Shown here in pieces: positions 12,887 to 44,880 of a stretch of 64,000 bases of DNA. Source of the stretch: Buddleja alternifolia (taxonomy: Eukaryota; Streptophyta; Magnoliopsida; Lamiales; Scrophulariaceae); the NCBI GenBank assembly GCA_019426215.1, contig CM033396.1:36632503-36696502 (forward strand). The letters run 5' to 3'. The position numbers and the translations under genes are program-made. The stretch's first letter is position 1. The number at the start of each line of letters is the position of its first letter. A model generated the notes under the pieces. That model saw only the letters and a list, made by a program, of their open reading frames with translations. It did no database searches and was not told the origin of the DNA.

Positions 12887-14747
12887 GTGGTGCAGTGAGC
12901 GTGGATCGATTCAAACAATGGGATCTGCAAAGTTTGATGTTGAGAGATTTACTGGAATGAATGATTTGGGCTATGGCGATTGAAGTTGAGAGCTCTTTTG
13001 GTTCAGCAAGGTCTTGCAGATGCATCAAATGGGGAGAAAGCATTATCTGAATCACTAAAGGATCAGGAGAAAAAGGAATTACTGGAAAAGGCTCACAGTG
13101 CAATCATCTTGAGTCTTGGAGATAAAGTTCTCAGAAAGGTTTCAAAAGAAAAATTTGTTGAAGGTATTTGGACTAAACTTGAAGCCTTGTATATGAATAA
13201 ATCCTTAGTTAATTGCCTCTATTTAAAACAAGCTTTGTACTCTTTTAAAATGAATGAAGATAAACCAATTAATGAACAATTGGATCTGTTTAGTAAATTG
13301 ATCTTGGATCTTGAGAATATTGGTGTACAATTGAAGATGAAGATCAAGCTTTACTGTTGTTATCTGCTTTGCCTAAAAGCTATACTCATTTTAAGGAGAC
13401 ACTGTTATATGGAAGAATCTCTGTCAGTAGATGAGGTACAATATGCTCTTAATTCAAGAGAACTAAATAACAGAAATGAAGTTAGAAATCAATCTCAGGC
13501 TGAGGGTTTGACAGTAAGAGGAAGACCTGAAAAGAGAGAATTCAAGAAGAAGTCTAAGGTTAGATCAAAATCTAATCCTAAGTTTGAATTTTGGCACTGT
13601 CAAAAGGAAGGACACACACGAAAGATGTGTCCTGAGAGGCAGAAGAACAAACCAGAAAACAAGAAAGAACAAGCTGATCTAGTGGTATCAAATGACGGCT
13701 ATGAGTCTGCTGATGTACTCTCTATATCAGACATCAATTCTGATAAGGAGTGGATATTAGATTCAGGCTGCTCATTTTATATGACACCTAATAAAGGTTG
13801 GTTTGAAGAGTTCAAGCTCAAGATGGTGGAAATGTCGTTCTTGGGAACAATAAATCCTGCAAAGTTCAAGGGATTGGTTCTGTAAGAATTAAGATGGAGA
13901 ATGGAATTGAGAAAGTATTTACACAAGTTAGGTATATTCCTGAATTAAAGAGGAACTTGATATCTCTTGGAATGTTAGACGAACAAGGATATCTAATTAA
14001 GGTGGAGACTGGTTCCTGGAAAGTTTTGAAGGGCTCTATGGTATTAATGAAGGGGGTTAGGAAGAATGGTATATACTCTCTGCTTGGAAGTACCATGATA
14101 GGCATGGTTTCACATGCTCAAAAGTCTCAATCAAATAAAGTCACTATATGGCATAAGAGATTGGGACATGTAAGTGAAAAAAGACTGCAGGAGCTGTCAA
14201 AACAAGGATTACTTGGAAATGATAAAATACAAAGTTTGGAGTTCTGTGAAATTTGTGCACTTGGAAATCTTGTAGAGTCAAGTTTGGCACTGGTATCAAA
14301 CAGACCAAGGGAACACTTGGCTATATTCATTCAGACCTTTGGGGTCCAGCCAGGACTCCATCACTCAGTGGAGGCAGGTACTTCATGTCTTTAGTTGATG
14401 ATTTTTTAAGAAAAATATGGATTTATGTTCTTAAGAATAAAACTGAAGCTTTTGAAAAATTTAAAGTGTGGAAAACACTAGTTGAAAACCAAACAGGAAA
14501 GAAAGTAAAAAGGCTAAGAACTGATAATGGCCTTGAGTTTTGTTCAAAAGAATTTGATGAATTCTGTATGAAACATGGCATTGCAAGACATAAAACTATT
14601 GCAGGAACTCCATAGCAAAATGGATTGGCTGAAAGGTTCAATAGAACCTTATTGGAAAGGATAAGGTGTGTGATGATAAGTGCTCACCTACCAAAGTCAT
14701 TTTGGGCAGAGACATTGAACACTACATCATACTTGATTAACAGATGC

Positions 14748-16301
14748 TGGTGGTCCCAAGTGGCATACGAAAGGGTCTAGAAGGGAGGGGGGTTGAATAG
14801 ACCCTGAAGTCTTTTTCGACTTCAAAAATATTTCGTATTAAAATGTAGATGCTTGTCTCAGCATTTACTTGAAGACAGTTTTGATAAAGTTAACTTAGAC
14901 TCAATATTTGAATACTATAACCAGATAGGTTTAACCGTTCAGTTCTTTAATCAGGGTTAACACAGCGGAATAATTTTAGAGTCTTCTCTTTTTGAAAGCT
15001 TTAGCGTCACAAGTTGTTTCTTAGTTGCTTAGCGTTTGATTATATTTTACTTAATCAATTTATGCAGTGAGATGATAATAAGAAAATTGACTGTAAAGTA
15101 AATAACACAATATTTGTAAGGTTCGTTGGGTGATGTAATCTCAACTACGTCCTTCTTCTCCTTGATCACTTGGAGGCAATCCACTAAAATGATTCTCAAA
15201 GAATCACACAGAATCTTCTACAATTTAGGGACAAAAGAAGAGATGGATATGGATGACTTGAGCTCCTTGGTCACACAGATTTCTGCTACAAGCCACTTCA
15301 ATCCTCTGCTTCTGGAAAGACGATCTCGAGCTCCTTCATCACACAGATTTCAACTCCAATAAAGATCTTCTCCAAGATGGCCTTGAACTCCTTGATCACA
15401 CAGACTTCAGCTCAAATAAAGACCTTTCTTCAACAAGCTTCTCTTACTCAAAAATATTGCTTGTGGAAGTCAACAATCTTTCTCACTCAGATGAAAGGTG
15501 TTGAGGGTTTATTGTAACAGGTTTGTTTGATGTTGGGAAGTTCAAACAACTTGGGATATCTCAGTAAGAATTTAGGTTTCTTCTTTGGAAGAGGTTTGAG
15601 ATATCTGGTGAAGGGTACTATTTATAGAGAATCTCGGGATTTGTCCGTTGGACATAAGTCAGGCGCGTGTACCTAACGCAGAGCTTCAAATAGTCCCTTT
15701 TCTGACATTCCTTAATTTCTGCTGATTCCGATTGGATAGGAGCAGGTTTGAACTCTGAAAAGCTGACAGTCTAGTCAAAAAAAGGTGGCTTGTCTACAAG
15801 TCATACTGTCTTGTTTACATTTAATGCACATATCAAGCATTTAATGCATTTTGAATTTATTTCCCATTGGAAATAAATGTCCGTTGGTGATTGCATTTAA
15901 GTCCTTGATAACTTAGGTTTTATCCTTCAAGTGAATCTGAAAGCTGGACGTTTGAGTCGGACGCTTGAGACAGCTGAGCGCTTGAGTCGCTGAGAACAGT
16001 CGCTGAGAACAGTCGCTGAGCGCTTGATTGAGCGCTCAGAACAAATCTTCTTCTTTACTTTGACTTTGGACGCTGATCTTCAACTTCATCACTTAATAGA
16101 CTCACACAGAACTCTATTAGTGATTTGGTATCACAAATTTAGTCTAAAATCTATAAAGATAAAAATTACAAGCCTAACAAAATAAGTAAACTTCCAAACG
16201 CTTATACAATATTTCTATGAAAGCATAAACTTACATTTTTGGGGTCTAACATAAAATCCTATCTTGTCATCATCAAAACATCTAACATGAAATTCCTAAC
16301 A
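14748..16301 (-). repeat. 3' LTR of element B (left copy)
   Basis: A 1554-bp copy of 18189-19887. It lacks about 127 bp that correspond to 19051-19177, with TGA microhomology at the joint. The reading frame at 15126-15362 repeats at 18565-18777 and is LTR sequence, not a gene. Confidence 0.88.
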
Positions 16302-17243
16302 ATTTCTCCCTTTTTGATGATGTCAAGACCTTAACTCTTATAACTCTTTTATAGTTTAAGAGTTCAAAGAAAAGCCCAAAAATAATATAAGTTAGCGTTA
16401 GAAAGTTAGATAAGTTAGCTAATGTTAGATTAGCTTTAACAAGATGTTTCAGCGATAAATCATTCAATCATGTATATGGAATTGAAAGCGTATATGATTT
16501 ATACTGAAACGATGCATACCTGCCTTTTCTTTCTCTTCTCCTTAAACTGTTTTTCTTTCTCTTCTTCCCCTTTCTTGGCATCATCAAGGGAAGACTGCAG
16601 TTCAAGCGATACTCGCTAGAAGAGGAGGACCAGTTGGTGTGGGAAAAACTCGGCCACTTCTATCGACCGCTCAGCGTCCACCGTCGTATCCACGTCTGGA
16701 CGGACAGTGTAAAACAATCTTCTAGCGATTTCCACAGTCACATCCACGTCTGGACGAACAATGAAAAAATTCTCTAGTGATTTCCACCACTATTGATACC
16801 ACTTGTAGATATCACTTGTTGGAAAATCAACATCCAACTATGTCTGCCTCTAGTTTTTTTTTTTTTAAATATGTATGAATTTTATAAAAGTTTCTATTAA
16901 GTGTTGAAGGAAATGTGTTCAACGCTTAACATATACCATTTGTTGAAATGATATCACTTGTTGTAAGATTTATGTTGACGCTTGAAATTAAATTCTTTCT
17001 ATGTTTGAGCGTTCAACACATCATGCACAAATAACAATAAGCGTTGATGATCAATGCATATGAAAAACGGTTTTTGATCATTGATGCTTACAGATATGTT
17101 CAAGTACAATTTTAAGGTTTCCCCTAAATTTGATAACTCGTAACAATTTTGAAAACACTTTTAGACAATATAATAAAGCGAATTCCCCCTACATTATATG
17201 TCTAATGAAAATACGATGCATAATGATTAAGCGTTTAAATTAT

Positions 17244-18075
17244 TCATACCTCGTTCTGGAATGACGAATAGGATTTTTCATATCTTAGAAATTTTTTGAA
17301 TTTCTTGACCAATAAATCCATTTCCTTTTCCTTACTCAATTCTGTCGCTTCCGCTTCACTGACTGATTTTCCCTTGCCCTTGATAGTAGTGATTAATGCT
17401 CCGGAATCAATTGAGGTGTAGCTGAGTGCATCCAATTCGAATTCAAAAGTCCTTAACTCCGAAAATACATGCTCTGGAGTTAGAATCTCCAACATCTGTG
17501 ATTCTCTCATAGCAGTTGTCTTCATAAAAAATCTACAGGGAAGACTTCTGAAAATCTTGTTGACCATTTCCTTGTTGGTCAACTCCATGCCTAGTGACGC
17601 TAACTCTGTAATGAGCGAAGTGAATCTCGTGTCTAATTGTTCTAGCGTCTCATTGGGCTGCATCTTAAAACCATTAAATCTTTCCTTGGCAATAGAAAGC
17701 TTATTTTCCTTCATTTGTGCTGAGCCACCACATATTATAGCAAACTTATCCCATATTTCCTTAGTCGTATTACATGACTTGACCTTGTTGAATAAGTTGT
17801 CGTTGTCACCTATGGTTGTATATAGACCGTTCCTCCCAACATTGTCCAAATTAGCTCTTCAATGCTCATCTGGGGACCATTCATGTTTCGGTTTCTCTAC
17901 ATAATCGTCAGGTGTTGTTTCTGTAGCTCCAGGCGCTCTGGTGATGACTTAGAGAATTTGAATCGGACCATCTGAAATGATATCACACATTTCATCATCA
18001 CACGAACACAAATAAGTAAACGCTTTCACCTGCCATGAGTCATAATTTGACTCGGTCAACTTAGGAACTCTAGCG
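17244..18075 (-). pseudogene. Copia-type gag of element B
   Basis: The clear part is the 201-residue frame 17849-17244, with a UBN2/Retrotran_gag pattern: TTKEIWDKFAIICGG, MKENKLSIAKERFNGFKM, then NKIFRSLP. In the same frame upstream, gag-like sequence (VPKLTESNYDSW, about 18045) continues through two stops near 17941 and 17859. No zinc knuckle was found before the stop at 17244. It would form the particle shell of a non-autonomous retroelement, but this copy is broken. Confidence 0.78.
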
Positions 18076-18174
18076 AAGGCAATGAAATTTTTTATTTTTT
18101 TTTAAAACAACTAAATTTTAAAGGGATCTGAACAAGAAGTTATGCTTGGAAATTTAAAAATTTCAACTTCAACT

Positions 18175-18186
18175 GCTCTGATACCA
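18175..18186 (-). other. Primer-binding site of element B
   Basis: On the minus strand it reads TGGTATCAGAGC, the usual complement of the 3' end of initiator Met tRNA. It fixes the orientation of the element. Confidence 0.85.
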
Positions 18187-18188
18187 AT

Positions 18189-19887
18189 TGGTGGTCCCAA
18201 GTGGCATATGAAAGGGTCTAGAAGGGGGGGTTGAATAGAACATGAGGTCTTTTTCGACTTCAAAAAATATTTCGTATTAAAATGTAGACGCTTGTCTGAG
18301 CGTTTACTTGAAGACTGTTTTGATAAAGTTAACTTAGACTCAAGATTTGAATAATATAGCCAGATAGGTTTAAGCGTTCAGTTCTTTAATTAGGGTTAAC
18401 ACAGCGGAATAATTTTAGAGTCTTCTCTTTTTGAAAGCTTTAGCGTCACAAGTTGTTTCTTAGTTACTTAGCGTTTGATTATGTTTTACTTAATCAATTT
18501 ATGCAATGAGATGATAATAAGAAAATTGACTGTAAAGTAAATGACACAATATTTGTAAGGTTCGTTGGATGATGTAATCCCAACTACGTCCTTCTTCTCC
18601 TTGATCACTTGGAGGCAATCCACTAAAATGATTCTCAAAAATTCACACAGAATCTTCTACAATTTAGGGACAAAGGAAGAGATGGATATGGATGACTTGA
18701 GCTCCTTGGTCACACAAATTTCTGCTACAAGCCACTTCAATCCTCTGCTTTTGGAAAGACGATCTCGAGCTCCTTGATCGCACAGATTTTAGCTCCAATA
18801 AAGATCTTCTCCAAGATGGCCTTGAGCTCCTTGATCACACAGACTTCAGCTCCAATAAAGACCTTTCTTCAACAAGCTTCTCTTACTAAAAAATACTGTT
18901 TGTGGAAGTCAACAATCTTTCTCACTCAGATGAAAGGTGTTGAGGGTTTATTGTAACAGGTTTGTTTGATGTTGGGAAGTTCAAAAAACTTGGGATATCT
19001 CAGTAAAAATTTAGGTTTCTTCTTTGGAAGAGGTTTGAGATATCTGGTGACTGTCTGGAATGTATTTGAGAAGCTTGAAGGATTTTGGCTATGGGATTTG
19101 CAAGCTTTTCTCTCAAATTATTTCTCAACTCTTTTTCACATTTACGTCTTTTTTCACACTTGCACAAAGATAGCTGAAGGGTACTATTTATAGAGAATCT
19201 CGGGATTTGCTGTTGGACACAAGTCAGGCGCGTGTACCTAACGCAGAGCTTCAAATAGTCCCTTTTCTGACATTCCTTAATTTCTGCTGATTCCGATTGG
19301 ACAGGAGCAGGTTTGAACTCTGAAAAGCTGACAGTCTAGTCAAAAAAAGGTGGCTTGTCCACAAGTCATACTGTCTTGTTTACATTTGATGCACTTATCA
19401 AGCATTTAATGCATTTTGAATTTATTTCCCGTTGGAAACAAATGTCCGTTGGTGATTGCATTTAGGTCCTTGATAACTTGGGTTTTATCCTTCAGGTGAA
19501 TCTGAAAGCTGGACGCTTGAGTCGCTCGGATGCTTGAGACAGTTGAGCGCTTGAATCAGCTGAGCGCTTGAGTCGCTGAGAACAATCGCTGAGATCAGTC
19601 GCTGAGCGCTTTACTGAGCGCTCGGAACAAATCTTCTTCTTGACTTTGGCTTTGGATGCTGATCTTCAACTTCATCACTTAATAGACTCACACAGAACTC
19701 TATTAGTGATTTGGTATCACAAACTTAGTCTAAAATCTATAAAGATAAAAATTACAAGCCTAACAAAATAAGTAAACTTCCAAACGCTTATACAATATTT
19801 CTATGAAAGCATAAACTTACATTTTTGGGGTCTAACATAAAATTCTATCTTGTCATCATCAAAACATCTAACATGAAATTCCTAACA
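18189..19887 (-). repeat. 5' LTR of element B (right copy)
   Basis: 1699 bp. It is the longer, more complete copy and is adjacent to the primer-binding site. Confidence 0.88.
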
Positions 19888-22119
19888 GATGCCCCTCTAC
19901 AGCTTTCAGTTTTAAAACTCCTAAAGTGATATCGTCTGGACATCCAGCTAATTACACTGGCTTAAAGGTGTTTGTTTGTACTGCTTACGCCCATATCAAG
20001 CAGGATAAGCTTGAACCAAGGGTAATAAAGTGTGTATTTCTGGGGTATCCAGAAAGGGTAAAAGGATACAGGTTATGGTGTCTTGAACCTAGTATGAGGA
20101 AATGTATAATTAGTAGGGATGTGGTGCTCAATGAGCAAGAAATGGGTTATCCTCACTTAAATAAAGTAGATAAACAGAAAGAAGAAAATTTAGATTCAAA
20201 TGAAGCCAATATTGAGGTGGAGCTATGGAATAGAACTGAAAAGGAGCTAGAAGGTGAAAATCTTCTTGTTTTTGATCCTACTGGAATTGATGAGGGTGAT
20301 TATGATCTTGAACATGGCCAGCTAACAGACTATACCTTAACAAGAGATAGAGAGAAGAGGGCAGTAAGAGCTCCTTGCAGGTATGGTTATGCAGACTTGA
20401 TGGCCTTTGCATTTGTTACTGCAGAAGAGACTGATTCTGAAGAGGCAAAGACATTTGATGAAGCTGTTAATAGTGAAAAAAAGGTGAAGTGGCTGCAGGC
20501 AATGAATGAGGAAATTAATTCTTTGTATAAGAATGATACCTGGAAATTAGTGGAGAAACCTAATAATCATAAACTTGTGAGCTGCAAATGGATATTCAAG
20601 AAGAAACAAGAGAATGATGGAATCAGATACAAGGCCAGACTGGTTGCAAGAGGTTTTACTCAGGTAGAAGGAGTTGATTACACTGAAATATTTTCTCCAG
20701 TGGTTAAGCATAGGTCCATAAGGTTGATGTTAGCTCTAGTAGCTCAATTTGATCTAGAACTAGAGCAACTTGATGTGAAATAGCTTTTCTATATGGTGAA
20801 TTAGAAGAACAGATTTTAATGAAACAGCCTGAAGGTTTTGAGATAAAAGGACAAGAACATAAGGTGTGTCTTTTGCAGAAGTCACTGTATGGTTTGAAGC
20901 AATCACCAAGACAGTGGAACAAAAGGTTTGATCAGTTTATGAGTAAACTTGAATTCAGCAAAAGTGACTTCGATTCATGTGTTTATTTCAAAAGTTTGAA
21001 AGAGGGGCAGATGATATATCTTCTACTATATGTGGATGATATCTTAATTGCATGTAAGTTCAAGCAAGAAATTCATAAAGTAAAGGAGGCTTTCAAGAAT
21101 GAGTTTGAAATGAAAGATCTTGGAACTGCAAAGAAGATACTTGGAATGGAGATTACAAAGGATAAATCCAGCAGTGTTCTATACCTAAGTCAGAATGGAT
21201 ACTTGACAAAGATATTGAGCAAATTTGGTTTGAGTAACTTGAAACCTGTATCAACTCCTATGTCAGCTCAGTTCAAGTTAAAAGCTCTAAAAAGTGATGA
21301 GGCAGACAAAGAGAAGAAATATATGGAGAAGATTCCTTATGCTAACATTGTGGGATCTCTCATGTATTTAATGGTATGTACTAGGCCTGACTTATCTTAT
21401 GCAATCAGTCTTGTGAGCAGGTTTATCTCAAATCCAAATAGAGACCATTGGTATGCTCTAAAGTGGATTTTGAGGTATGTTACATGGACAATTGATAAGG
21501 GGTCGGTATTTGAAGGAAAGAAGAAGAAATGGCAAGAAGAAGTCATGATTGATGGATTTGTTGACTCTGACTATGCAAGGTGCTATGATACTAGAAAGTC
21601 TTTGGCTGGTTTTGTGTTTACTGCTTTTAGTACTGCTATCAGCTGGAAAGCAAGTCTTCAAAGAGTAGTTGCTTTGTCAACAACAGAAGCTGAGTACATG
21701 GCTTTGGCTGAAGCCATAAAGGAAGCCATGTGATTATATGGTTTTGTTCAAGAGTTACAAATTGAACAAGAAGTCTTAAGTGTATTTTGTGATAATCTAG
21801 GAGCTGTGAATTTGTCAAAGAATGGTATGTATCATGAGAGGACAAAGCACATTGATATCAGAATGCATTTTATTAGAGAAGTGGTAGCAGCTGGAAATAT
21901 AGTGGTAAAGAAGATCAAGACAAAAGATAACCCTGCTGATATGTGTACTAAGCCGATTCCAAATAGCAAATTTGAATATTGTTTGGAGTTGATTGGAGTT
22001 GGAAAAGTTTGAGTCTCTTTAATGAGACCGAATCTCCTAGTGAGATTGATGTATTGATTCTCTAGGGTGAGGATGAAAGGTCAAGTACTGAAGGTTTTTT
22101 TGTAACTAAGGTGGAGATT

Positions 22120-29162: not shown

Positions 29163-32100
29163 TCAGTCAAGATCTTTAAGTCTACGCACACCAATATTGT
29201 AGACTAGCTTTTCAAATGTTGTTGTGGGAAGTGCCTTGGTGAACAAATCAGCAAGATTATCTCTGGAACGGATTTGTTGAACATTGATATCACCATTCTT
29301 CTGAAGATCGTGAGTGAAAAAGAACTTTGGTGAAATATGCATTGTTCTATCTCCTTTAATGTACCATTCTTTCAATTGTGCGATACATGCGGAATTATCT
29401 TCATATAAGATCGTCGGGATTATTTTTCCAGAAGATAAACCACAAGTCCCTCGAATATGTTTAATTATAGATCTTAACCAAACACATTCTCGACTCGCCT
29501 CGTGAATAGCTAAGATTCTGCATGATTAGATGATGTGGCTGATATGGTTTGTTTCATAGACCGCCATGAAATGGTTGTGCCACCACATGTAAATAAATAG
29601 CTTGTTTGTGAACGACCATTATGAGGATCAGACATATATCCAGCATCTGCATATCCAACCAATTCGGACTTGGGTACATTTGAATAAAACAAGACCATAT
29701 CGATTGTTCCTCTAAGGTAGCGGAGTACCTGTTTAACCCCATTCCAATGCCTTCGTGTAGGAAAAGAACTATATCTTGCTAATAGATTAACAGCGAATGT
29801 TATATCAGGTCGAGTATGACAAGCAAGATACATTAGTGCACCGATTGCACTTAGATATGGTACTTCAGGACCAAGTAGTTCTTCATCACTTTCTCGAGGT
29901 CGAAAAGGATCTTTGTTCACATCTAGTGACCTTACGACCATCAGGGTGCTCAATGGATGTGATTTATCCATGTAGAAACGCTTTAACACCTTTGATATAT
30001 AAGCGTCTTGATATACAAAAATTCCGTTCTTTAAATATTCAATTCGTAGTCCAAGGCAAAATTTTGTTCTTCCAAGATCTTTCATCTCAAATTCTTTCTT
30101 TAAGCAATTAACATTTTTTGAAATCTCTTCAGGAGTTCCAACGATATTTAAATCGTCAACATAAACTGTAATTATACCAAACTCATTTCCAGATCTTTTC
30201 ATGAAAATACAAGGACAAATTTGATCATTCTTATATCCTTCCTTCAACAAATATTCACTGAGACAATTATACCACATTCATCCAGATTGTTTCAATCCAT
30301 ACAATGACTTACTTAATTTAATTGAATAATGTTCTCGAGAACTTGATTTATATGCTTCAGGCATATTAAATCCTTCGGGGATTTTCATATATATATATAT
30401 ATCATTATCAAGCGAGCCATACAAATAGGCTGTAATAACATCCATTAGACGCAAATCAAGTTTTTCATGCACTGCCAGACTTATTATATAACGAAAAGTA
30501 GTTGCATCCACCACAGGAGAATAAGTCTCCTCACAATCTATGCCAGGTCGTTGCGAAAACCCTTGGGCAACAAGACGTGCCTTATATCTTACAATTTCAT
30601 TTTTCTCATTTCGTTTTCGCACAAATACCCATTTGTATCCTACTGGCTTTACATCTTCAGGTGTACGGACTACAGGTCCAAAACTTTTACATCTTCAGGT
30701 GTACGGACTACAGATCCAAAAACTTTTACATCTTCAGGTGTACGGACTACAGGTCCAAAAACTTTTACATCTTCAGGTGTACGAACTACAGGTCCAAAAA
30801 CTTTTCGTTGGTTCAAGCGAGTTTAACTCTGCCCTCATTGCGTCTTTCCATTTTGGCCAATCATTTCTTTGTCGACATGCATTAACAGACTTTGGTTCTT
30901 GATCCTCATTATCATTCATCATATTTAGCGCTACATCATATGCAAATTTATCGTCAACGTTGACTTCATTTCGATTCCATCATTTCCCGTTCATAACATA
31001 ATCTATTGAGATCTCATTATTTTCACAAGTTTCAGGTACCTGAGGTTCTTCTGGAACCAAAATATTAGTTATGACTGGGGACTCTTCTGGAGTTATTTTA
31101 TCCTCGATTAGACCATCTTGATTCTTAGCTCCTTTTCTTTTTCGAGGATGACTATCTTTGGAACCGATAGGTCTACCACGCTTCAGGCGTGCAGTAGACT
31201 CATTACTTTGACCTTCAGGGACAACAATTCTTACTGGAGCATTAACAGCTGGTACATGTGACTTAGTCACTTTTTTTTAGGTCAGTAAATGCGTCTGGCA
31301 GTTGGTTAGCTAAACTTTGCAAGTGAATTATCTTTTGAACTTCCAGTTCACTTTGTTTTGTTCGAGGATCAAGATGATATAAAGATAATTCATTCCAACT
31401 AATTTTCTTTTCCAGCTGCTTATTTTCTCCCCCTAATGTTGGGAAATCTGATTCATCAAAATGACAATCAGCAAATCGAGCCGTAAATAAATCGCCAGTC
31501 AATGGCTCTAGATACTTTATTATCGATGGAGACTCGAATCCAACATATATTCTCAACTTCCTTTGAGGACCCATCTTAGTGCGTTGTGGTGGAGCAATTG
31601 GAACATATACCGCACATCCAAAAAATTTTAGATGGGAAATATTTGGTTCCTGACCAAAAACCAAGTGTAATGGGGAGAATTTATGATAACTTGTTGGCCT
31701 TATGCGAATAAGTGCTGCTGCATGCAAAATAGCATGTCCCCAACAAGAAATAGGAAGTTTTGATCTCATAAGTAAAAGTCTTGCAATTAACTGTAGACGT
31801 TTAATAAACGATTCTGCTAGACCGTTTTGTGTATGAACATGTGCTACAGGATGTTCAGCATCAATTCCAATAGACATACAATAGTCATTGAACGTTTTGG
31901 AAGTAAATTCACCTGCATTATCAAGGCGTATCTTCTTCATTGAATAATCAGGAAAATGTGCTCGTATTCTAATCAATTGAGCAAGCAATCTCGCAAACGC
32001 CAGGTTGCGAGTTGATAACAAAGATACATGTGACCATCTTGTTGATGCATCAATTAAAACCATAAAATATCTAAATGGTCCACACGACGGGTGTATTGGT

Positions 32101-33310
32101 CCACAAATATTGCCTTGAATACGTTCCAAAAGCGTAATAGATTCACTTCCTATTTTTGCTTATAAACAAGCAGCACATGAAAAATCATTCGATTGAAGAA
32201 TCTGCTGGCTCTTCAATGGATGACCATATGAATTCTCAATTATCTTTCGCATCATAATTGATTCGGGATGGCCCAACCGGTCATGCCAAACAACAAACTT
32301 ATTTTGATTTGTAAACTTCTGGTTTACGATAACATATGTTTCAATAGTAGATATATGCGTGTAGTACAAACCGGAAGACAATGCTGGCAACTTTTCCAAT
32401 ATACATTTGTTACCAGATATTGTATTAGTGATGTAAAGATACTCAATATTGCCATCACTTGTTGTCTCAATATGATATCCATTTCGGTGGATATCTTTGA
32501 AGCTTAGTAAATTTCTTTGAGACTTAGTAGAATATAAGGCTTCATCAATATAAAATTGTGTTCCTCCGGGTAACAATATATTAGCTCTGCCGGAGCCTTC
32601 AATTAATTTTGCACTACCCGATATAGTATTAACATTGGCTTCTTGCATTACTAAATAAGAGAAGTATTTTTTTTATTTTTGAGGATGGTGTGAGTTGTTG
32701 TACTATCAGCGAGACATATATTTTCATTATTGATGTTGTTGCTGATCGAGTAAATACTCATTCTTTATTGAAACATAAAAAGAAATAAATCAATATCAAA
32801 CAATATTATTTAATATAAGAAACGATAATCTTATGAATAAATTCATTTATTGAACTTTAAAACAACATACTTAAATATTTATTTATAAATTACTAGAATT
32901 AAAACTTAACAAATTTGTTTTTGAACACTTCCATCTCCAATCAAGTGATCAATTTTTTCATTAGGATCATCAAAGAAATCAGCAACATCTAAATGAGTGT
33001 CATCAAAATCGGCCATGATCAGAATCGCCTTCTTCAAGAGCAAAATTTGTTTCTATTTTCTTTCTTTTACTTTTTACCGATTTTTGGTAAAGGTCAACAA
33101 GATGCTTTGGTGTACGACAGGTACATGACCAATGACCTTTACCACCACAACGATAGCATAAATTTTTCACAAATTTGCTATTTTGGCCACTTTCATGTTT
33201 CTCTTCATTATTTTTCCACTTCTGGTGGAAAGATGTGTTCTTTGAATAACCACCACGATTTCCATAACCATATCCACGACCACGTCCACGTCCATGATTT
33301 CTTTAATGAT
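29163..33310 (-). pseudogene. Gag-Pol of copia C, degraded
   Basis: On the minus strand, gag remains as an Arg-Gly-rich stretch and an intact CCHC knuckle CYRCGGKGHWSCTC (about 33110-33155). Then come protease-side sequence (32648-32160), the pre-integrase motif WHDRLGHP (about 32260-32285) and an integrase core with VLIDAST, RLDNAGEF and NGLAESF (32129-31263). Reverse transcriptase follows (30622-29510) with YVDDLNIVG near 30160. RNase H and the tail with LADLFTKALP end at 29163. Stops or frameshifts fall near 33306, 32160, 31263, 30979, 30640, 30277 and 29510, so no functional protein can be made. A 39-bp tandem duplication disrupts the start of reverse transcriptase. Confidence 0.88.
30651..30805. 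repeat. 39-bp tandem repeat, four copies, in copia C
   Basis: Units start at 30651, 30689, 30728 and 30767. On the minus strand each 39-bp unit encodes the 13 residues KVFGPVVRTPEDV. One unit is 38 bp and so shifts the frame. Confidence 0.9.
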
Positions 33311-35397: not shown

Positions 35398-35407
35398 TAT
35401 ATATATA

Positions 35408-35476
35408 GGGTCAAGATCCAATATATATCCTATATTAGATAAGATATAAGATCCAATATACACCATTGGATCCATT
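35408..35476. repeat. MULE 2 left terminal inverted repeat
   Basis: Pairs with 44803-44870; core TTAGATAAGATATAAGA at about 35434-35450. Confidence 0.8.
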
Positions 35477-35766
35477 AAATCCAACAGTCCATAATAACCC
35501 TAGAAACAGGCGGGAAAACCCAATTTTACTTAACTAGGGGTATAATAGTAAAAAGACACCCAATTATACAACTTGCACTCCCCCCCATTACATCCACGAT
35601 CTCCTGATTTCTCTCGCATTCAAACCCACTCCTAAAGAACCCAAAATCACGATTTGAATCGAATTAAAGACATATCTTTCCGAATCTAACTGCATAATCT
35701 TGTTTCGCACATCAAAAAAACCCTAAAAAAAAAAATACCAAAAGCGAGTTTTTTTTTCAGCAGAAA

Positions 35767-38700
35767 ATGAGGTCAAAAAACCCTTCCATCTGCGCAGGTA
35801 CCCATTGAATCAATGATGTTGTTCGACCATATGGATGATAAATTTATGAATTTAGATGATTTCGATGTTAAATAACTTCGATTTTGTTTCATTTGCTGTA
35901 ACTACACGCTATTTATTGGGGACGAATAATGACTTTTTATTGATTTTGAATCCATATTTGTATAATCACATGCTGGTTTTTTTGAAATTAGTGTGTAATG
36001 CTACTGTATGATGAGTTTGCGTACATTGTATATTGACTTACATGATAATGTATAATGATTTAAATATACTGTATAACGGTTTTTGTATTCTAACTGTATG
36101 ATGTATAAACATACACTGTATATTGCCTTATATGTTGCTGTGTACTGATTTTAAATGTACTATATAATGATTGTGCACGTAATGTATACTGAATTGCATG
36201 CTACTGTATAATGATTTAAATATATTGTATAACGGTTTTTATATTGTAATTGAATGATGTATAAACATACTGAATATTATATTGTATAATATGTTATAAT
36301 ATACTATGTAATGAAATCTTCTTTTATTAATAATATATGATACATTAACACAGACTGTATAATACATGAACTGATATATAATAGGTTTATTTGTTGATGT
36401 GTAATATCTTGATTGTTTCTGTATAATGTGTAAACCAATACTAATATTTGTATACTACAGGTTCTGAGGAAGAGCCATCCACCTCTTCCACCTCTGCTTC
36501 GGAAGATAGGTACCAGATTGTTCCTGTAGATGCAGTGCCTGTAGATGTTATGGAGCCTCTAAAAGTCGTTGAAAGTGATTCGGATGACGAATACGTAGAA
36601 TCAGCCGAAGAGACAGAATCAGAACCGCAACGCACATCTACGAAGAGGCGCGCGAAACAACCTCTTGCGAAAACATCATCAAAACGAACAAAAACAGATA
36701 CTGTACAGAAACATCAAACTAAGGGGAGGAAAAAGTCTGTCGATTATACACAAATACGAATTTCTATGAAGGTGTTGGTGGAAACCATTTCAACCCTGAC
36801 AGAACCGCAACAAAATTGGGTTAAACTGTTTGGTTTTGGAGCGTTTTTAGAATTCAAAATCAAGGAGCTCCCTCACAATCTCGGTTTTAAAATTGTAAAG
36901 GCGTTAAATCCAGGAAATTTTAGATTATCTCTACCTGGAGGCAAGATTAATATTAAAGAAGAAGATGTGGCGGAGGTTCTAGGTTTTCCACACGGTGAGC
37001 GTCGTATAGACCTAACGGTCAAGAATCAAGAGAGGGTGGACCTGTGGACAGATCAATTTGGGCTTCCTAAGTCCAAAAAATTTAAAGTTACGGCTCAGAT
37101 GATATTAAATGAACTGAGGTCTGAACATGAAGCAACCGACCAATTCAAGCTGAACTTCATGATGATTCTCTACAATTGCTTGATAGAGACACCTAGTACA
37201 GCATTTGTCAACAAAAAGATGCTGAATTTCAAAGGTGATCTTGCTGAGTTGACAAGTTACAACTGGCCCAGACTTGTTATAGACAGTTTGGCAGACACAA
37301 AGAAATCATGGGAAGAGGATCTGGCGCCTCGTATGTATACGGGTCCTCTTCTTTTTCTGATTGTAAGTGTACATTAACTATTCTAATTTTATTTGTGTTA
37401 AAAAAATGTGGTTTTGATGATTACGTATGATTTATATTTTTTAATTTGACACTGTATTTTAACTGTGTGATGTGTGCATTCACACTGTTTAATGTATTGT
37501 ATTGTATATACTCTATTGTGTAATGTCCTAGAATATACTGTATAATGTATTAGGATACACTGTATAATTTTTAATGAGTTGCTGTCTATTGGGTTGTAAC
37601 CTACTAAATACTAATATTTTTTAACTTTTTTTGTTTTCTATTAATGCAGATATTGTATGCTGACAGAGTGAACTACAAGGGCCATGCGACAGTCCCACGA
37701 TCAATCCCAGCATGGCTTACTTGGACAGATGCCTCCCTACGAGAAAAGAGTGTCGTAGAACTTCAACCAAGTAATTTCGGAACGGGGGTAATATCAAAGG
37801 CACAATGGTTGTTGAAGAGTGACAAGGGTAAACATGTTGTTCAACACGTTGAAGATCCAAACGAACCCCCTTCCTCGCTGCAACCTCCGTCACAACTAGT
37901 GCAAACATTCACGGATTTGAATACGCTTGAAGAGGTATACATGTCTCTGTAAAATCTATGTACTGTATACTGTTTAATAAATTGCTCTACTTTAACCGTA
38001 TGATGTGTAGCCATATAATGTACACTTCAAATAAAAATATTCACAGGGAATGCTGGCAAATTTGGAAAAAGCTTCCTTGAACCTGATTGACAATATTATC
38101 AGGTACAACGGATACATGCAGTCATGTGATTCTGTACTCCCGTCAAATCCACGATTAAAAGAAATTCAAAAAATTGTGTTCAATACTATCGGGAGAGTGT
38201 ACAAAATACAACCGGGGTCAGAGGATGAACCACTATTTGTTCCTCACAAACCTACCGAGCAGCACGAAAAACCGCCATCCCCCAAACAACATGCATCCGG
38301 TGCTGATCAGCCTGTCCACCCCAAAGAAGTCGCACCCGCATCCGATAGAACAATTAGTACGCCAATGCCTTCACGGCCAACTTTTGACTTGTTGTCACAA
38401 CATACGCCACCGAAAGAACACCAAGCGGCTGAAGTTAACCCACGAGAACCAATCATCCTCTCAATGCCAAGCTTTGACTTGTTGACACAGCAAACACCAC
38501 CAGAAAAAATGCAGCGGCCTGAGACGGGTGGCAGAGAACTGGCTGAGGCGGTGACAATTGCTAGACAATACACCGATGATGCCTCCAATGTCACAGAACA
38601 AGAGACTTCGTCATCTACAAATTTGACCGTTAAACCGGCTGCCGTGGAATTCATTGGTGAGCAAAGGAGACTGTTGAAACCAGCGCCAGACACTTGTTCT

Positions 38701-40359
38701 CCGTACATTCAACGGGTCGTGCATATAAGCTCAAAGCAAAGCGCAATGGAAAAAAGACTATGGGAATGGATGAAGCATGTTGATGAGGAGAACATGTGAG
38801 TACATATCATTTTTAAATAAATTTGTTTTATTGAGATTCCTGTTAATACTATATGCACACTGTATACTAACTCATTGTATATTGTATAATGTTACACTGA
38901 TTACTGTATAATATATCATTATACACTGTATAATATGGTCTGCATAAATACAACCTGTATAATGCATAAAATCCTTTTGTATACTAACTCATTACAAACT
39001 GTATGCTGTTTTTTCAGGACTATTGTTTTCCATTGTGGTGATATGATGTGCACTATTTGGGATATAAAGTCCTTGTATCAACGCACTGAGCTTTTATCTG
39101 GTGTGATTGATACTTGGTCATTCCTGTTGAACAACGCTGAGGCGACGAGATCTCCAACATCACCACTCAGATTTTTTTTCAACCTGGCCGACACGGTAAA
39201 ATATACTTCTTATATTTCGTTAATAGATACGTTATAATGATATGCATGCTAACTAATTTTTTTAAAAAAATGGATAACAGATGTTTTTCGCTTCAAATAA
39301 ATCAGAAAAAAGTACTCATGTGCTGCAACAAAAATTCAAGGATAACGTTAAACATCGTATGAACACGTTTCCAAGAGTCAACATAACCGATGTTACGTTG
39401 GTAAGTTAATATTGTTCATTTTTTATAATTAACGTATTTTATGTAACTTTATTAACACCACTTTCATCCATCAATATATAGGCCGTCTTTCCAATTTTCC
39501 ACGCTGGACACTACTATGTGATATGCTTTAATTTGAAGCAACCAGCTATTGAGATCTTGGACAACAGCGCAACGGAGGTCTCGATTGAAAACAAATATCA
39601 ACATGTGCCATTCACTTTGGTACCTATCCTCCAAACACTAAAAAAATTTTGATGTCGAAATATCGTTGTTAAGTCTACACTATAACATAATGAATATACT
39701 CAATTGACTTTAAAGTATACAGTGATGCACCATATAAATGTATAGTAAAATCACTGTATAATGATGTAGTCACTGACTGTGTATGGATATATTACAACAC
39801 TATATAATGCTACATAATTGCACTGCATAATTATTTATTACATGCTGTATAATGAAAATAATACTCTACTGAATAATGACATATTAAGATACAGTATATT
39901 AATATATTTATACACTGAATCTTACATTTTTTGTTTGTTGTTTCAAAAAGAGGGACATGTTTGTGAGTTTCCTGATGGATATCAACCATCCGGCTGGAAA
40001 TGCATTGTCAGCTGAAGAAATTGTAAGGCTTCCAATGCCTTGGCGTACACACTGAAACAAATCGGATTGTGGTATTTTTGTTATGCGTCACATGGAGACT
40101 TACCTCGGTGGAGGACTGAAGTATTGGGACCCGGAATTGGGTCCAGAAAACGTAACGTTTTACACTTTTTTATTTATATGTATGAAATTTTGTGAAATTC
40201 TTTATTTCCTACCTATCTAACCTTAATATTTATACAATGCAAAAATCGCAAATTACAAAACTCAATAGATTGAGGGGGCTTTATCTGGAAAAGATCCTAA
40301 TTTCTGAGCTAAACATACACAAAGACGAAATCCTCACACAGTCAAGGGGGTTGGAATAG
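35767..40359 (+). pseudogene. MULE-borne protein with Ulp1/C48 SUMO-protease domain
   Basis: Nine exons: 35767-35797, 36461-37362, 37650-37934, 38047-38795, 39018-39195, 39281-39400, 39482-39619, 39951-40151 and 40243-40359. Together they make 907 codons in one frame. Residues 12-100 are acidic, then basic (nuclear-localisation-like). Residues about 110-400 form a conserved module (LFGFGAFLEFKIKELP, EEDVAEVLGFP, YNWPRLVIDSL) like the DUF1985/plant-mobile-domain-like parts found beside Ulp1 domains. A Pro-rich linker has two FDLLxQxTPP repeats. The C-terminal C48 domain has His in HAGHYYVICFNL (about residue 765), Asp in EILDNS (about 782) and Cys in DCGIFVMRHMETY (about 841). Lesions: TGA at 40053-40055, just before the catalytic Cys, and a last acceptor that reads CAA instead of CAG (40240-40242). 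The rest is intact, so loss of function is recent. Confidence 0.82.
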
Positions 40360-43300
40360 GAACAAGCTCAACATAAAAAGGGGAAGAAGGGATAGGATTA
40401 ATCAACGCGTATTTGTTAGAACAATTATATTTGGTGTTAATAGATTGACTTTTAGCATTTCATTGTACATGTTTTTTATTACTTATTAATTTTTGCTGCA
40501 ATACAACATTTATTTGGGTTGTTTAACTCTATAAAGTTTATTTAATGTACATAACCTGTTGTTCTGATTATTGAGTGTCATACTATATATGTTCTGCAAA
40601 ACATATACAGTACACAATATGCATGTTATGCAATAATTAAAGTTTCGATATACAGTTAACAATTTTACATTATACAGTATACTTATAAGCAGTATAGAAA
40701 AAATCATATTCATTATACATTATAAAAAATACTCAATTGTATTATGGAATTAAACTAAATAATACAAAAATTACTCAATTATACATTGAACATTATGACA
40801 TTTTTTCATGCATTGAATAACACTTCATTGAACAGTCAATGATTTTGTATATATTGAGAAAACTGCATCTATTATACATTGAATAACACACCAGTATACA
40901 GTGTATAAGACTATATTATACAGTGAAATATACTTCATTCTACAGTAACTAAGGTATCTTCTATTTTCCCTTTAATGGACAAGTTCTTGCATTGTGCCCA
41001 TCAACTTTTCCACACGCAGCGCATTTCCTCCTCTTGGGAACATGCTTGGATATCTCCGCACTGCTCTTAATTCTTTTACCACACCCTTTGGTTCGGCTCA
41101 TTTGAGGATTTCTGATCCCAAGCTCGTTCTCAATTTGGGGGCCCACAAGTGTCTCAATAACAGCAATCTTGTTCTTCTTATTTTTGTCGTCCGCACCAAC
41201 ACTCAAATGAGACTTTATATCCACCAATTGATTTTTTATGTATTCGAGTTTTTCTTTGTTAAAACCCGCAATATTTAAACATGCTTGAAAATCGATCCAA
41301 ATTTGACTCACATCATTTGTAGTCTTCTGAATCATCATGCGATATTGAGTCATGTACTTGTTGATTGAATCAGAAGCCATAATTCCTGCGTTTTTCCTCC
41401 ACCTCCTTAAAACATACTTGTCTGGGATTTTATGTATTCGGCTTTGGTTTAATGCAAATATAATGTGTCTACACAAAATTCCCCGCCTCCCAAACATTCT
41501 GCAAGAACAATCAACCTCATTGTTCGATACAACATGCTTCACCTGCAAACATGTGTACATTGAATATACTGTAACAAATATTAACTATAAGTACAATATA
41601 CAGAATATATAATGATGGTATACATTATACAAAATATATACCTCATATAAATTGGTTTCGTTGTCTGAATCAAATACGACAAATGCTTTCACACCATCGA
41701 CAGCATTTAGACTTTGAAGAATCACTTCATAAGCAGACTTTTTGATTTCCACTTGTACATCGTAGAAAACAGCACGTGTGTATACCTCCGAAGCATTATC
41801 CTCTATCGGCATAGGGGTTTCGGTTGATGGCTTAGATACCAAAGATTCATGGTTTAATCTTGCATTCTTATTCCTTTGCTTGTCCATAGCACTCTCAAAT
41901 CTACTGTAGAACTCAATTATTGTGTCACCCTTTACGTAGAATTGGTTAAAGAATGAATTAACCAACTCTGAAATAGAAGTAGTCCTCAACAGCCCACCCA
42001 TCGAAACATCTCTATAAGTGGACACCCAAGAATGTCTGTTGTCGTATATTTCAGAAAGCCATTCAATATGGCTTAGACCATACTTTGAAACAAGATCGTT
42101 CCAACCCTCTTCAAACTCCAGTGTAGTTAAATCGTCATTATACACAAAATTATTCACCTTTCTCACTACTTCAGCATATTTACCAGTATGTGGTGAAATC
42201 TGTATAAAAAACAATCACATGTATACATGTTATACAGTATATTTCATCACAATATACACTATCTAATGCAACATTGTACAATTTTTTACACTAAGCTATA
42301 CATTATGAACTGAACTTGTTAAAATTGCACTATTCACTAAATACAATATCATACTACTGAAATATAAATACTACTATCACAAAAAATAATATATAATGTA
42401 ACAGACAATAAGGATTAAAATGGTGTAAAAAATCCGCACCTTGGTTGGGAACTTCTTCATGATATGCCACGCACACAGACGATGCCTAGCCTTTTTAAAA
42501 GCACTAGGAATAGCTTGTTTCATAGCAGGACATTGGTCAGATACAATATATATTGGTTCCCGTCCCATCGCACGTGTAAAAGCTTCAAAAATCCATGTGT
42601 ACGACTCAATATCTTCTTTTGCGATTAGAGAAGCACCAAATGTGACTATTTTCTTGTGGTTATCTAAACCAGTAAAAGGAACAAACTTCATTTGGTACCT
42701 GAAATGTAGAATAGACTAAAATGTAAAAAAATACAAGAAAACATTAACTAAAACTATATTATACACTAAAAGACTAAGCATTATACAGGGATTAACAAAT
42801 TGTTATACATTACATGTACACTGCCTATAATAAAAAAATGTATTCAGACATTGTACATGAATGAAATTTATATTCATTACCTATTGGGAACAAAAATGTA
42901 TATTATCATATCTTAATATCAATTAAATGTGCTTACTTGTTGGATCGAAATGTTGCATCAACCGAACAAACTTCCCCAAACAATTCAAAATTTCGTATTG
43001 AAATAGGGTCGGCCCAAAACAACCTACACATAAACCCGTCGTCATCAATGTCGTAATCAAAGAAAAATCCTTCACATCCTTTTTTTCATGTTCATGAACT
43101 TTCTAACAATCATCTCACCGTCGTTCTCACCGACGTATTGCTTCACGTCTCTTTTTGCATTTTTAAAATCAGTAGACGTTGACCCAATGTTGTTAAACCC
43201 ACCCACAATTTCCTTTAGAAAAGAATATGATCTAACCGCACCAACGTTCACCTTTGATGCATTTAGGCAGAACATTATCTGTGACGAGTCAATATTCCGA

Positions 43301-44200
43301 TTGATTTTCATAAACTGTTTACCCTCGTCTGTTGCAAGTTCGTGATTGTGCCGATCAACAAACTTCTTTATAACATATCCATCTATAGCACTAAACCTCA
43401 TTACAATCTTAGCATTGCAGCCACAACGACTAATCATGCATTTCTTCTTCCTACCGACATCATCGGAATTTTTGTAAATACCGGATCAACTGCATACAAA
43501 GTGCTTCGACAATACCGTACCATCGTTGTGTGTTTTTTGTGAGCATTTACGGACATCGAAAGCGAGCGTATTTTTTGTAAAATTCAAATGCAATTTTCAA
43601 ACTATCAAATGCCTTTCCAATGCAAGGTTTTGCCTCAGAGGCACACATTGGAATCCAATATTTGGATCCTCCAGGTGATGTGATCGAATTCGATGACAAT
43701 GAAGATCCGGGACAATGATTCTCATTATCGTTATTGCTAACCGCTACTGATCCTGTTAAGAATGTACAATGAATTGCATGTTACTGTATACAATTATCAT
43801 AATGTGCACATAATGTATACTGAATTGAATGTTACTGTATACAATCTTATATGATAACATAATACATTTTGTATTAACAAGATGTCATATAATGCTTAAT
43901 GAGCCGTCATACTATATAATAATGAGTATATAACGCTGTATAACATCGATGCATGTTCTATATATTGTTTTATTTATTTAATCTATCAGCTCGTGTATAA
44001 TGTGTTAACATGCAACGTATAACGCACTTTGCAACACTGCATAAATCTGTGCATTATATTGTATATAATTATGCAACTAACACTGTTTTAGTGCATTTTA
44101 ATATACGCTGCATACCCACTAAAAATGAACTGTACAAATACATATAACATCACTGTATAGTATGTCTTAACGTTCTGTATATTATACATGCAGACCAAAC
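35941..44200. repeat. Dispersed TGTATAATG-type motif array in MULE 2 non-coding DNA
   Basis: By eye, exact TGTATAATG starts at 36049, 36205, 36420, 37539, 38883, 38956, 39755, 39846 and 43994. The reverse form CATTATACA starts at 38917, 40668, 40711, 41623 and 42779. Many one-base variants (TGTATGATG, TGTATATTG, TGTATACTG, TGTATAACG) lie between them, often as ACTGTATAATG. All exact copies are in introns or the convergent spacer and none in the inferred exons. Most point in the direction of transcription of the gene they lie in. Confidence 0.85.
40360..40960. other. Convergent spacer of MULE 2
   Basis: Lies between the stops of the two element genes. It is AT-rich and dense in CATTATACA-type motifs. 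No gene was seen. Confidence 0.6.
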
Positions 44201-44320
44201 TAGTTCATTACCACTTAACACCATCTGTAACTTCACAATTAAAGCGTAATCAAATCCGCAAAACAATATCAAACAAACGCAATCGAACAATTTAATCATA
44301 CCTGAGTCTATTTCTGCCAT
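40961..44320 (-). pseudogene. FAR1/FHY3-like MULE transposase
   Basis: Inferred exons on the minus strand: 44320-44302, 43752-42937, 42698-42440, 42199-41642 and 41542-40961. Domain order: FAR1 DNA-binding region (KAFDSLKIAFEFYKKYA, then GCNAKIVMRF and DRHNHELA), MULE core with first Asp in CSVDATFRSNKY, second in YIVSDQCPAMKQAI, a CAWHIMKK motif, and a likely Glu in RTTSISELVNSFF. Then follow a SWIM finger (DCSCRMFGRRGILCRHI) and a C-terminal zinc knuckle CAACGKVDGHNARTC. Lesions in exon 2: a frameshift near 43571, TGA near 43484 and a frameshift near 43076. Exons 3-5 are open. It belongs to the transposase family from which the plant light-signalling factors FHY3 and FAR1 were derived. This copy is inactive. 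Confidence 0.87.
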
Positions 44321-44802
44321 CAAAACTTAATCAAACGCTATTGTAATGAATGAATATATACTCAATTGAAGACGCTGCTTTCTTGTTTATGAATATCTCT
44401 TGAATTGATGTTGAAAAATCCCTAATTCCGATTGAAATTGCCGATGATGTGTCGATTATATAAGACTTGAATACTATCTCAAATCGCCGATGATGAAACG
44501 AATATGTATATGATATCTGATACTAGTTCCAGTTGAGAAATACGATGTTGATTTGATAAGAACTTCCAGTCATACGAATCTGGGAATTTCTGTATTTGAT
44601 CGTGCAATACTTTCTTCCGATATTGGATTTATTAATTAAAATGGAAAGATGAATTTGTTACTGCGTAATATATGGGATTTGATTTTCATCTGCATGTTAA
44701 TTGCATGGGCTTGTTATGACTATTGCCTAAAATGCCCTTTTCATCATTAAATTAAATATTATCTCCGAAAAAATGGGCAAAACTATGGACCTTGGGATCA
44801 AT

Positions 44803-44865
44803 TGATTTATATGGCATAGATTGAGTCTTATATCTTATCTAACCCATAGGGATGTATTTGATCCA

Positions 44866-44870
<5 letters not shown>
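44803..44870. repeat. MULE 2 right terminal inverted repeat
   Basis: Inverted partner of 35408-35476, sharing the core TCTTATATCTTATCTAA. Confidence 0.8.

Positions 44871-44880
<10 letters not shown>

What the first reader, a model, noticed from the sequence alone, without database searches (positions are those of the whole stretch)
35941..44200. Motif array in a Ulp1-carrying MULE suggests a VANC-like self-recognition (anti-silencing) system
Seen: TGTATAATG or its complement occurs 14 times exactly, with many one-base variants, in introns and the spacer of MULE 2 and not in its inferred exons. Known: in Arabidopsis VANDAL elements, VANC proteins (DUF1985-bearing, related to Ulp1-associated genes) bind short motifs (YAGTATTAY for VANDAL21, from memory) clustered in the element's own non-coding DNA, and cause loss of DNA methylation there. 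Inference: the accessory gene at 35767-40359, whose N-terminal module resembles DUF1985 or plant-mobile-domain-like proteins, may have bound TGTATAATG to protect the family from silencing. A FAR1-type MULE outside the VANDAL lineage doing this would be new. Simple AT-rich drift does not easily explain sparing of exons together with the fixed G positions.
Basis: partly seen in the sequence, partly recalled or inferred. Interest (0 to 1): 0.9.

Follow-up and report, generated by a model that had tools for sequence, protein, structure and literature searches.

The report
Transposon carrying phased self-recognition motif arrays
A plant jumping gene and its relatives in the same genome carry dense, evenly spaced copies of an 11-letter DNA word in their non-coding parts, probably a self-recognition signal read by a protein that the element itself encodes, much like the anti-silencing VANDAL elements of Arabidopsis but in a different transposon lineage.

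Summary
The word is ACTGTATAATG: a matrix built on this element finds 86 sites in 3,640 bp of its introns and spacer and 3 in 4,864 bp of exons, in orientation blocks and most often exactly 22 bp apart. The element is a 9.5-kb FAR1/MULE/SWIM Mutator-like transposon with inverted ends and a convergent DUF1985-like + Ulp1 gene. In its own 853.6-Mb genome the 11-mer occurs 14,282 times against 1,676 for the reversed control, exact pairs 22 bp apart 2,348 times against 0. All 20 copies fetched by protein similarity carry the array, to dS about 1. Thirteen short copies without detected coding sequence carry it. One recently amplified clade has changed one motif letter in separate blocks. Three other DUF1985 families lack the motif; one has a different tandem array. 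Best reading: a cis-recognition array for the element's DUF1985-Ulp1 protein, working like VANC anti-silencing in a non-VANDAL lineage. Binding and demethylation are inferred; per-site constraint is weak. Ulp1-bearing VANCs and Ulp1 in Jittery-like MULEs are in print, so this is a new variant.

The parts
35407..44873 (.). Whole Mutator-like element, about 9.47 kb, between inverted ends; AT microsatellite on both sides, so the target-site duplication cannot be fixed to the base
   Evidence: Inverted arms 35435-35493/44784-44842 (73% complementary) and 35387-35426/44852-44891 (88%, partly microsatellite); end sequence recurs in 17 of 18 motif-picked loci
35767..40220 (+). Accessory gene: DUF1985-like exon 2, variable exon 4, Ulp1 (Peptidase_C48) exons 5-8; exons 35767-35797, 36461-37362, 37650-37934, 38047-38795, 39018-39195, 39281-39400, 39482-39619, about 39952-40220; in-frame TGA at 40053-40055 just before the segment with the catalytic Cys
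   Evidence: GT-AG junctions and one open frame through exon 7; Pfam DUF1985 and Peptidase_C48; TGA; exon 7-8 junction unresolved; no transcript data
40961..44320 (-). FAR1/MULE/SWIM transposase gene, degenerate: exons 44320-44302, 43755-42937 (frames broken), 42699-42440, 42201-41641, 41543-40961
   Evidence: Pfam FAR1 1.5e-7, MULE 1.7e-21, SWIM 2.7e-8; junctions; broken frames of exon 2
35798..36460 (+). Motif array in accessory intron 1: 16 sites, all + (threshold 8.5)
37363..37649 (+). Motif array in accessory intron 2: 6 sites, all +
37935..38046 (+). Motif sites in accessory intron 3: 3, all +
38796..39017 (+). Motif array in accessory intron 4: 7+/1-
39620..39951 (+). Motif array in accessory intron 7: 5+/1-
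40221..40960 (-). Motif array in the spacer between the two convergent genes: 13 sites, all -
41544..41640 (-). Motif sites in transposase intron 4: 1+/3-
42202..42439 (-). Motif sites in transposase intron 3: 2+/3-
42700..42936 (-). Motif sites in transposase intron 2: 2+/4-
43756..44301 (+). Motif array in transposase intron 1: 9+/2-, mostly antisense to the gene; shares a 39-bp stretch (92%) with accessory intron 1
   Evidence: (family D9)
38371..38508 (+). Repeated peptide in variable exon 4 (FDLLxQxTPP, two copies 90 bp apart, DNA 77% identical)
   Evidence: family D16; translation

Best explanation
The array is a family-specific cis-recognition sequence of a FAR1-type MULE. Binding sites 11 bp long, two DNA turns apart and in one orientation, fill most non-coding parts of the element so that an element-encoded protein can coat it. 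The most likely reader is the accessory DUF1985-Ulp1 protein, acting like VANC: it binds clusters of its own motif, probably as an oligomer, and keeps the gene starts and the spacer free of silencing, which also lets array-bearing short copies multiply. Shown here: the array, its phasing, its near-absence from exons, its presence in all 20 protein-picked copies, its presence in short copies, and a shift of one motif position in one clade. Inferred: who binds, oligomerisation, and loss of DNA methylation.
For: Array in 20 of 20 copies chosen by protein alone: 605 sites in 33,845 bp without coding match (17.9/kb) against 25 in 35,975 bp coding (0.7/kb); 247 same-strand pairs at exactly 22 bp against 15 at 21 and 12 at 23. 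Genome-wide 14,282 against 1,676 (reversed control) for the 11-mer, 2,348 against 0 for 22-bp pairs. A full-length relative (62% identical over 221 aa of the DUF1985 exon, 93% in the MULE domain) has 94 sites, 90 outside coding matches, with the same order of orientation blocks. 13 short copies: 253 sites in 25.7 kb (9.8/kb) against 40 in 89.6 kb of flanks (0.45/kb). DUF1985 exon under purifying selection between clades (window against 13 distant copies: dN/dS 0.12-0.24 at dS 0.7-1.3). In clade E1 (2 copies) the word is [G/A]TGTATAAT (26 G, 17 A) with 2 C; in the window clade (4 copies) 34 C, 12 T, 4 G, 4 A. In one full E1 element (it contains one of those two copies) all 18 exact words upstream of exon 2 have G or A, and 8 of 9 beyond the FAR1 exon, about 7.5 kb away. 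Exon 4 has the lowest identity of all exons in both full-length relatives (39% and 44%) and carries a repeated peptide, as described for VANC variable regions. Three other DUF1985 families have 0, 1 and 0 motif hits in 3.5 kb each.
Against: No binding or methylation data. Between close copies motif columns change almost as fast as other intron columns: in 10 of 13 pairs motif divergence was 0.65-0.89 of the rest, in 3 of 13 it was higher (which crashed after 13 of 16 pairs), so selection on single sites is weak or most copies are dead; close pairs also have looser protein constraint (dN/dS 0.31-0.54 for the window against its 8 nearest copies, up to 0.78 in other close pairs). DUF1985 is below the curated cut-off in the window protein, and 3 of 14 members do not match at E 0.1. 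The spacer half of the 22-bp unit also has a weak consensus (nnnTATAAnaT), so part of the regularity comes from tandem duplication. In clade E2 the letters are mixed (30 C, 21 G, 18 A, 6 T), and other introns of the E1 element keep some C. Two of three other DUF1985 families show no strong intronic array in the part fetched.
Confidence: 0.6

Rival explanations
1. The motif is a binding site of the element's own FAR1-domain transposase, needed for transposition or autoregulation, like subterminal repeats of other DNA transposons.
For: Short copies without detected coding sequence have inverted ends plus array, as expected of transposase substrates, though these loci were picked by the motif; the transposase has a FAR1 DNA-binding domain.
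Against: Sites fill introns and the central spacer, and exact motifs are absent from the terminal 359 and 552 bp. The transposase is conserved between clades (80-94% by exon in E1) while the motif letter changed. FAR1/FHY3 are known to bind a GC-containing site (recalled, from no call).
Confidence: 0.17
2. A neutral 22-bp minisatellite seeded in the introns, spread by slippage and gene conversion, without function.
For: Exact 22-bp period; long runs of 22-23 bp units in the relative; weak consensus in the spacer half; near-neutral divergence of motif columns between close copies.
Against: Arrays sit in separate introns of two convergent genes and in the spacer, divided by exons. In 247 pairs at 22 bp the spacer half is only 43% identical (about 31% by chance), although both cores are still recognisable (the core identity of 79% is raised by how sites are called). 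A core learned on one copy is found in copies at dS about 1. Orientation blocks are kept in the relative.
Confidence: 0.15
3. A host factor binds the array (transcription activation, splicing or nucleosome positioning), and the element exploits it.
For: Both genes have a tiny first exon followed by a motif-rich intron 1 in my models.
Against: The motif is rare outside the family (0.37-0.48/kb at threshold 8.5 in the window outside the element and in flanks of copies). Transposase intron 1 carries it mostly antisense, which argues against an RNA-level role.
Confidence: 0.08

Closest known systems
VANDAL21/VANC21 and VANDAL6/VANC6 anti-silencing (Hosaka 2017, PMC5735166, parts 1-3 of 6 read; Sasaki 2023, PMC10398659, part 1 of 6 and passages)
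   Same: Short 8-9 bp motif clustered in introns, spacers and other non-coding parts of the element, same orientation, tandem units, change between relatives; accessory protein with DUF1985 and a variable region with repeated peptides; Mutator-like element. A mobile non-autonomous element with direct repeats that VANC6 might target is noted in PMC12312487 (passages)
   Different: Here FAR1-type transposase, recognisable inverted ends, Ulp1 domain on the accessory protein, motif ACTGTATAATG instead of YAGTATTAY or AGTTGT[CA]C, strict 22-bp phase (not mentioned in the parts I read)
KAONASHI/KIU: Ulp1-bearing VANC in non-TIR MULEs (review PMC13317346, passages; primary paper Sasaki 2022 not held)
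   Same: VANC-type accessory gene with Ulp1 domain, reported to act on own motifs; in KI-MULEs in reverse orientation to the transposase (PMC2528002, section 10)
   Different: KIU elements are described as non-TIR MULEs of the Vandal type; this one has TIRs and a FAR1 transposase
Jittery-like MULEs with Ulp1 (grapevine: Benjak 2008, PMC2528002, passages and section 10 read; melon as cited there)
   Same: Jittery-like (FAR1-type) transposase with Ulp1 sequence downstream
   Different: No motif array or anti-silencing is mentioned in the section read

Membership tests
VANDAL (VANC system) | Accessory protein with DUF1985 | tested here: inconclusive
   24.8 bits against cut-off 35.1; 11 of 14 members match at E up to 0.1, best 2.4e-5
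VANDAL (VANC system) | Motif arrays in the element's non-coding DNA, same orientation, dense | tested here: met
VANDAL (VANC system) | Variable protein region with tandem peptides | tested here: met
   exon 4: two DNA-level copies in the window (D16); a strict peptide pattern hits 13 of 22 copies, twice in 3 of 22 (in 2 of these 3 in different frames) and not at all in 9
VANDAL (VANC system) | MuDR-type (VANA) transposase | tested here: not met
   FAR1 + MULE + SWIM; no MuDR DNA-binding domain among the matches of its exons. That VANA is MuDR-type is recalled
VANDAL (VANC system) | Missing or degenerate TIRs | tested here: not met
   inverted ends recognisable in window and copies; PMC6446971 (passage) notes that some VANDAL-clade members have TIRs
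VANDAL (VANC system) | Protein binds motif and removes DNA methylation | not testable with these tools
   needs binding and bisulfite data
KIU (Ulp1-bearing VANC) | Ulp1 peptidase domain on the accessory protein | tested here: met
   Peptidase_C48 29.0 bits against 20.7 (query joined over an unresolved junction, X at the stop)
Jittery-like / FAR1 MULE | FAR1 N-terminal, MULE core, SWIM C-terminal, TIRs | tested here: met
Jittery-like / FAR1 MULE | Groups with Jittery in a transposase tree | not tested
   no reference transposases fetched

The most novel reading that the evidence does not exclude
A sequence-specific anti-silencing system has arisen or been carried over in FAR1/Jittery-type TIR MULEs, outside VANDAL. 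A DUF1985-Ulp1 protein reads arrays phased at two DNA turns as an oligomer, protects autonomous and many short copies alike, and one recently amplified clade has switched recognition letter (ACTGTATAATG to [G/A]TGTATAAT) in step with its protein.
Probability: 0.5. Interest if true: 0.8.

Novelty: new variant of a known kind. Interest (0 to 1): 0.64.

Why it matters
VANC anti-silencing is worked out in Arabidopsis VANDALs. Here a different transposase lineage, in a genome with 129 scored protein copies (a lower bound) and 14,282 exact motifs, offers natural variants of protein and motif. It makes three questions directly testable: what the DUF1985-type module reads, whether the Ulp1 part is needed, and whether motif switches accompany bursts of amplification. 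The strict 22-bp phase gives a structural hint about oligomeric binding.

Tried and rejected
A transcript-level reading (motif follows the gene strand) was considered because accessory introns carry it on + and transposase introns 2-4 mostly on -; rejected because transposase intron 1 carries it mostly antisense. A first EM motif search drifted to a diffuse AT pattern and was replaced by hard assignment. The search of 5.8 billion proteins scored 7,987 candidates and none passed E 0.001 (plants are perhaps not covered). A PDB search with the family profile gave one match at E 0.73, not meaningful. Motif constraint between close copies turned out weak (the script crashed with a missing-exon error after 13 of 16 pairs and was not rerun), which I report as evidence against. 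A peptide-to-motif correlation (strict FxLLxxQ pattern present where the motif is C-type) was imperfect (L029, L035 and L043 are C-type without a hit, L041 and L047 have mainly C words without a hit) and is not used. An ends-based survey of copies and a transposase-based survey were wanted but did not complete, nor was a control at another spacing.

Selection of loci: L009-L026 were picked by motif places on one contig (one search lists only the first places; L025 and L026 stood on single hits), so their motif content is not independent. L028-L047 were picked by protein (20 of 129 scored matches, chosen by eye to span identity levels and preferring open frames). L049-L051 are 3 of 168 DUF1985 matches. 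L027 duplicates parts of L019 and L020 and was used only for the full-length relative. L009, L011, L016, L020, L022 and L026 were left out of the count of 13 short copies (one end only, complex, full-length, or no ends), and L019 beyond 6,400 was left out.
Full report
OBSERVATION. TGTATAATG occurs 15 times exactly in the window, all in 36049-44002; 100 shuffles gave a mean of 1.35 and at most 7. Unbiased k-mer counting gives ACTGTATAAT and CATTATACAG as the most enriched 10-letter words of the element, absent elsewhere in the window. With exon models read by eye 14 of 15 copies are non-coding and one (42136-42144) is inside a transposase exon. A matrix refined on the element's introns and spacer reads ACTGTATAATG: 86 sites in 3,640 bp (60 shuffles: 14.0 +/- 3.6), 3 in 4,864 bp of exons, 1.1/kb in the other 54 kb and 1.3/kb in its 35 AT-rich tiles. 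Base composition therefore does not explain it.

ANATOMY. The element runs from about 35407 to 44873 between inverted ends embedded in AT microsatellites, so the target duplication cannot be read to the base. Two convergent genes: on + an accessory gene with a 31-nt first exon, a DUF1985-like exon 2, a variable exon 4 and Ulp1 exons 5-8; on - a FAR1/MULE/SWIM transposase with a 19-nt first exon. This copy is defective: a TGA at 40053-40055 in the Ulp1 gene and broken frames in transposase exon 2. Motif sites lie in accessory introns 1-4 and 7 (+), the spacer and transposase introns 2-4 (mostly -), and transposase intron 1 (mostly +, antisense to its gene); accessory introns 5 and 6 have none.

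PHASE. In the window element same-strand sites are 27 times at 22 bp, 15 at 44, 2 at 21, 2 at 23. In the 20 copies picked by protein: 247 at 22 bp, 153 at 44, 15 at 21, 12 at 23. The spacer halves of these 247 pairs are 43% identical, against about 31% by chance. Genome-wide, ACTGTATAATG-N11-ACTGTATAATG occurs 2,348 times and its reversed control 0 times; spacers listed there show a weak inner consensus nnnTATAAnaT (21 spacers that I chose from the list), so tandem duplication has contributed. A control at another spacing was asked but not answered.

COPIES. The genome holding the window (853.6 Mb, 429 contigs, unnamed) has 14,282 exact ACTGTATAATG against 1,676 for the reversed control. Of 18 motif-picked loci, 17 show the element's own end sequence. 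Thirteen short copies of 1.4-2.4 kb with both ends, in 12 of these loci, carry 253 sites in 25.7 kb, their flanks 40 in 89.6 kb, and no coding match at E 1e-4 was found in them. A protein search listed 129 scored copies of the DUF1985 exon among 578 candidates, many open, with a large near-identical group at about 65%. Twenty of them, spread over identity levels and fetched without regard to the motif, all show it: 8.2-29.4 sites/kb outside coding matches, 0-1.5/kb inside, modal spacing 22 bp in 20 of 20. A full-length relative keeps the order of orientation blocks: 94 sites, 90 outside coding matches.

EVOLUTION. The DUF1985 region is under purifying selection between the window and 13 distant copies (dN/dS 0.12-0.24 at dS 0.7-1.3) and looser against its 8 nearest (0.31-0.54); some other close pairs reach 0.57-0.78. 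At dS near 1 the core is kept. Clades A-D, the relative and L044 share the C-type word ACTGTATAATG. Clade E1 (2 copies) has G (26) or A (17) instead of C (2) before TGTATAAT; E2 (4 copies) is mixed (30 C, 21 G, 18 A, 6 T). In a full E1 element, which contains one of the two copies just counted, all 18 exact words upstream of exon 2 have G or A, and 8 of 9 beyond the FAR1 exon, while other introns still hold some C. Against strong selection on each site: in 13 pairs of copies (of 16 planned; the script crashed), motif columns diverged at 0.65-0.89 of the rate of other intron columns in 10 pairs and faster in 3. I read this as turnover of sites in mostly dead copies, but it weakens the case.

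CONTROLS. One MuDR-type MULE in the same window without this accessory gene (10440-12110; DBD_Tnp_Mut) has 4 hits in the 5.2 kb around it. Three other DUF1985 families of the genome (3 of 168 matches at E up to 0.001) have 0, 1 and 0 hits in 3.5 kb each. One of them, highly amplified, carries instead a 110-bp tandem array with its own repeated word upstream of its DUF1985 exon; the other two show no strong intronic array in the part seen. Which kind of transposon they are was not determined.

MECHANISM. The pattern matches what was shown for VANC21 and VANC6: short motifs in non-coding DNA, same orientation, high density, tandem units, target change between relatives, and a protein with DUF1985 and variable regions that often hold repeated peptides (PMC5735166, parts 1-3 of 6 read). 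A review states that Ulp1-bearing VANCs (KIU) act on their own motifs and that Ulp1 capture in non-TIR MULEs dates to the separation of monocots and eudicots (PMC13317346, passages; it cites Sasaki 2022, which I could not read). The most economical reading is that the DUF1985-Ulp1 protein reads ACTGTATAATG at 22-bp steps. The fixed step of about two helical turns with poorly conserved spacers suggests neighbouring subunits on one DNA face; this is inference.

MEMBERSHIP AND NOVELTY. It works like a VANC system but is not a VANDAL: the transposase is FAR1-type and the ends are inverted repeats. Ulp1 in Jittery-like MULEs is in print for grapevine and, as cited there, melon (PMC2528002, section 10 read); a survey table gives the plant Jittery subgroup, with N-terminal FAR1, one ORF (PMC6446971, passages). 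Searches for anti-silencing with VANDAL and Ulp1, Jittery, or FAR1 listed 1, 2 and 1 papers, none of which by title or by the passages or abstract starts I saw reports anti-silencing in FAR1-type MULEs; PMC3091746 and PMC8616336 were seen as listings only, and the library lacks most subscription papers. Hence: new variant of a known kind.

Noticed in passing
L049 (G000 C1:11938387-11941860), 1868-2577 in locus coordinates: Another highly amplified DUF1985 family carries a 110-bp x 6.4 tandem array, with TTCATCAA 14 times in its non-coding DNA, upstream of its DUF1985 exon: possibly the target of a second such system.
   Followed up: partly
G000, whole genome: DUF1985 genes are very abundant: 168 matches at E up to 0.001 with 693 first-look candidates; the listed rows are all over Pfam's cut-off, many near-identical and open, suggesting recent bursts of several families.
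   Followed up: partly
window 43803-43841 and 36172-36210: A 39-bp stretch of accessory intron 1 recurs (92%) in transposase intron 1 in direct orientation, as if array pieces move between the two gene starts (D9).
   Followed up: no
window 36002-36270: A 113-bp unit of accessory intron 1 is repeated 156 bp further on, 83% identical (D8).
   Followed up: no
window 10440-12110, - strand: MuDR-type MULE transposase remnant (DBD_Tnp_Mut, MULE) without the motif array.
   Followed up: yes
window 12965-21733 and 29510-32672: Open frames that look by eye like Copia-type retrotransposon polyproteins; not tested.
   Followed up: no
window 36640-36739: A lysine/arginine-rich stretch just before the DUF1985-like region is partly conserved in 14 aligned copies and may help DNA contact or nuclear import.
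   Followed up: no
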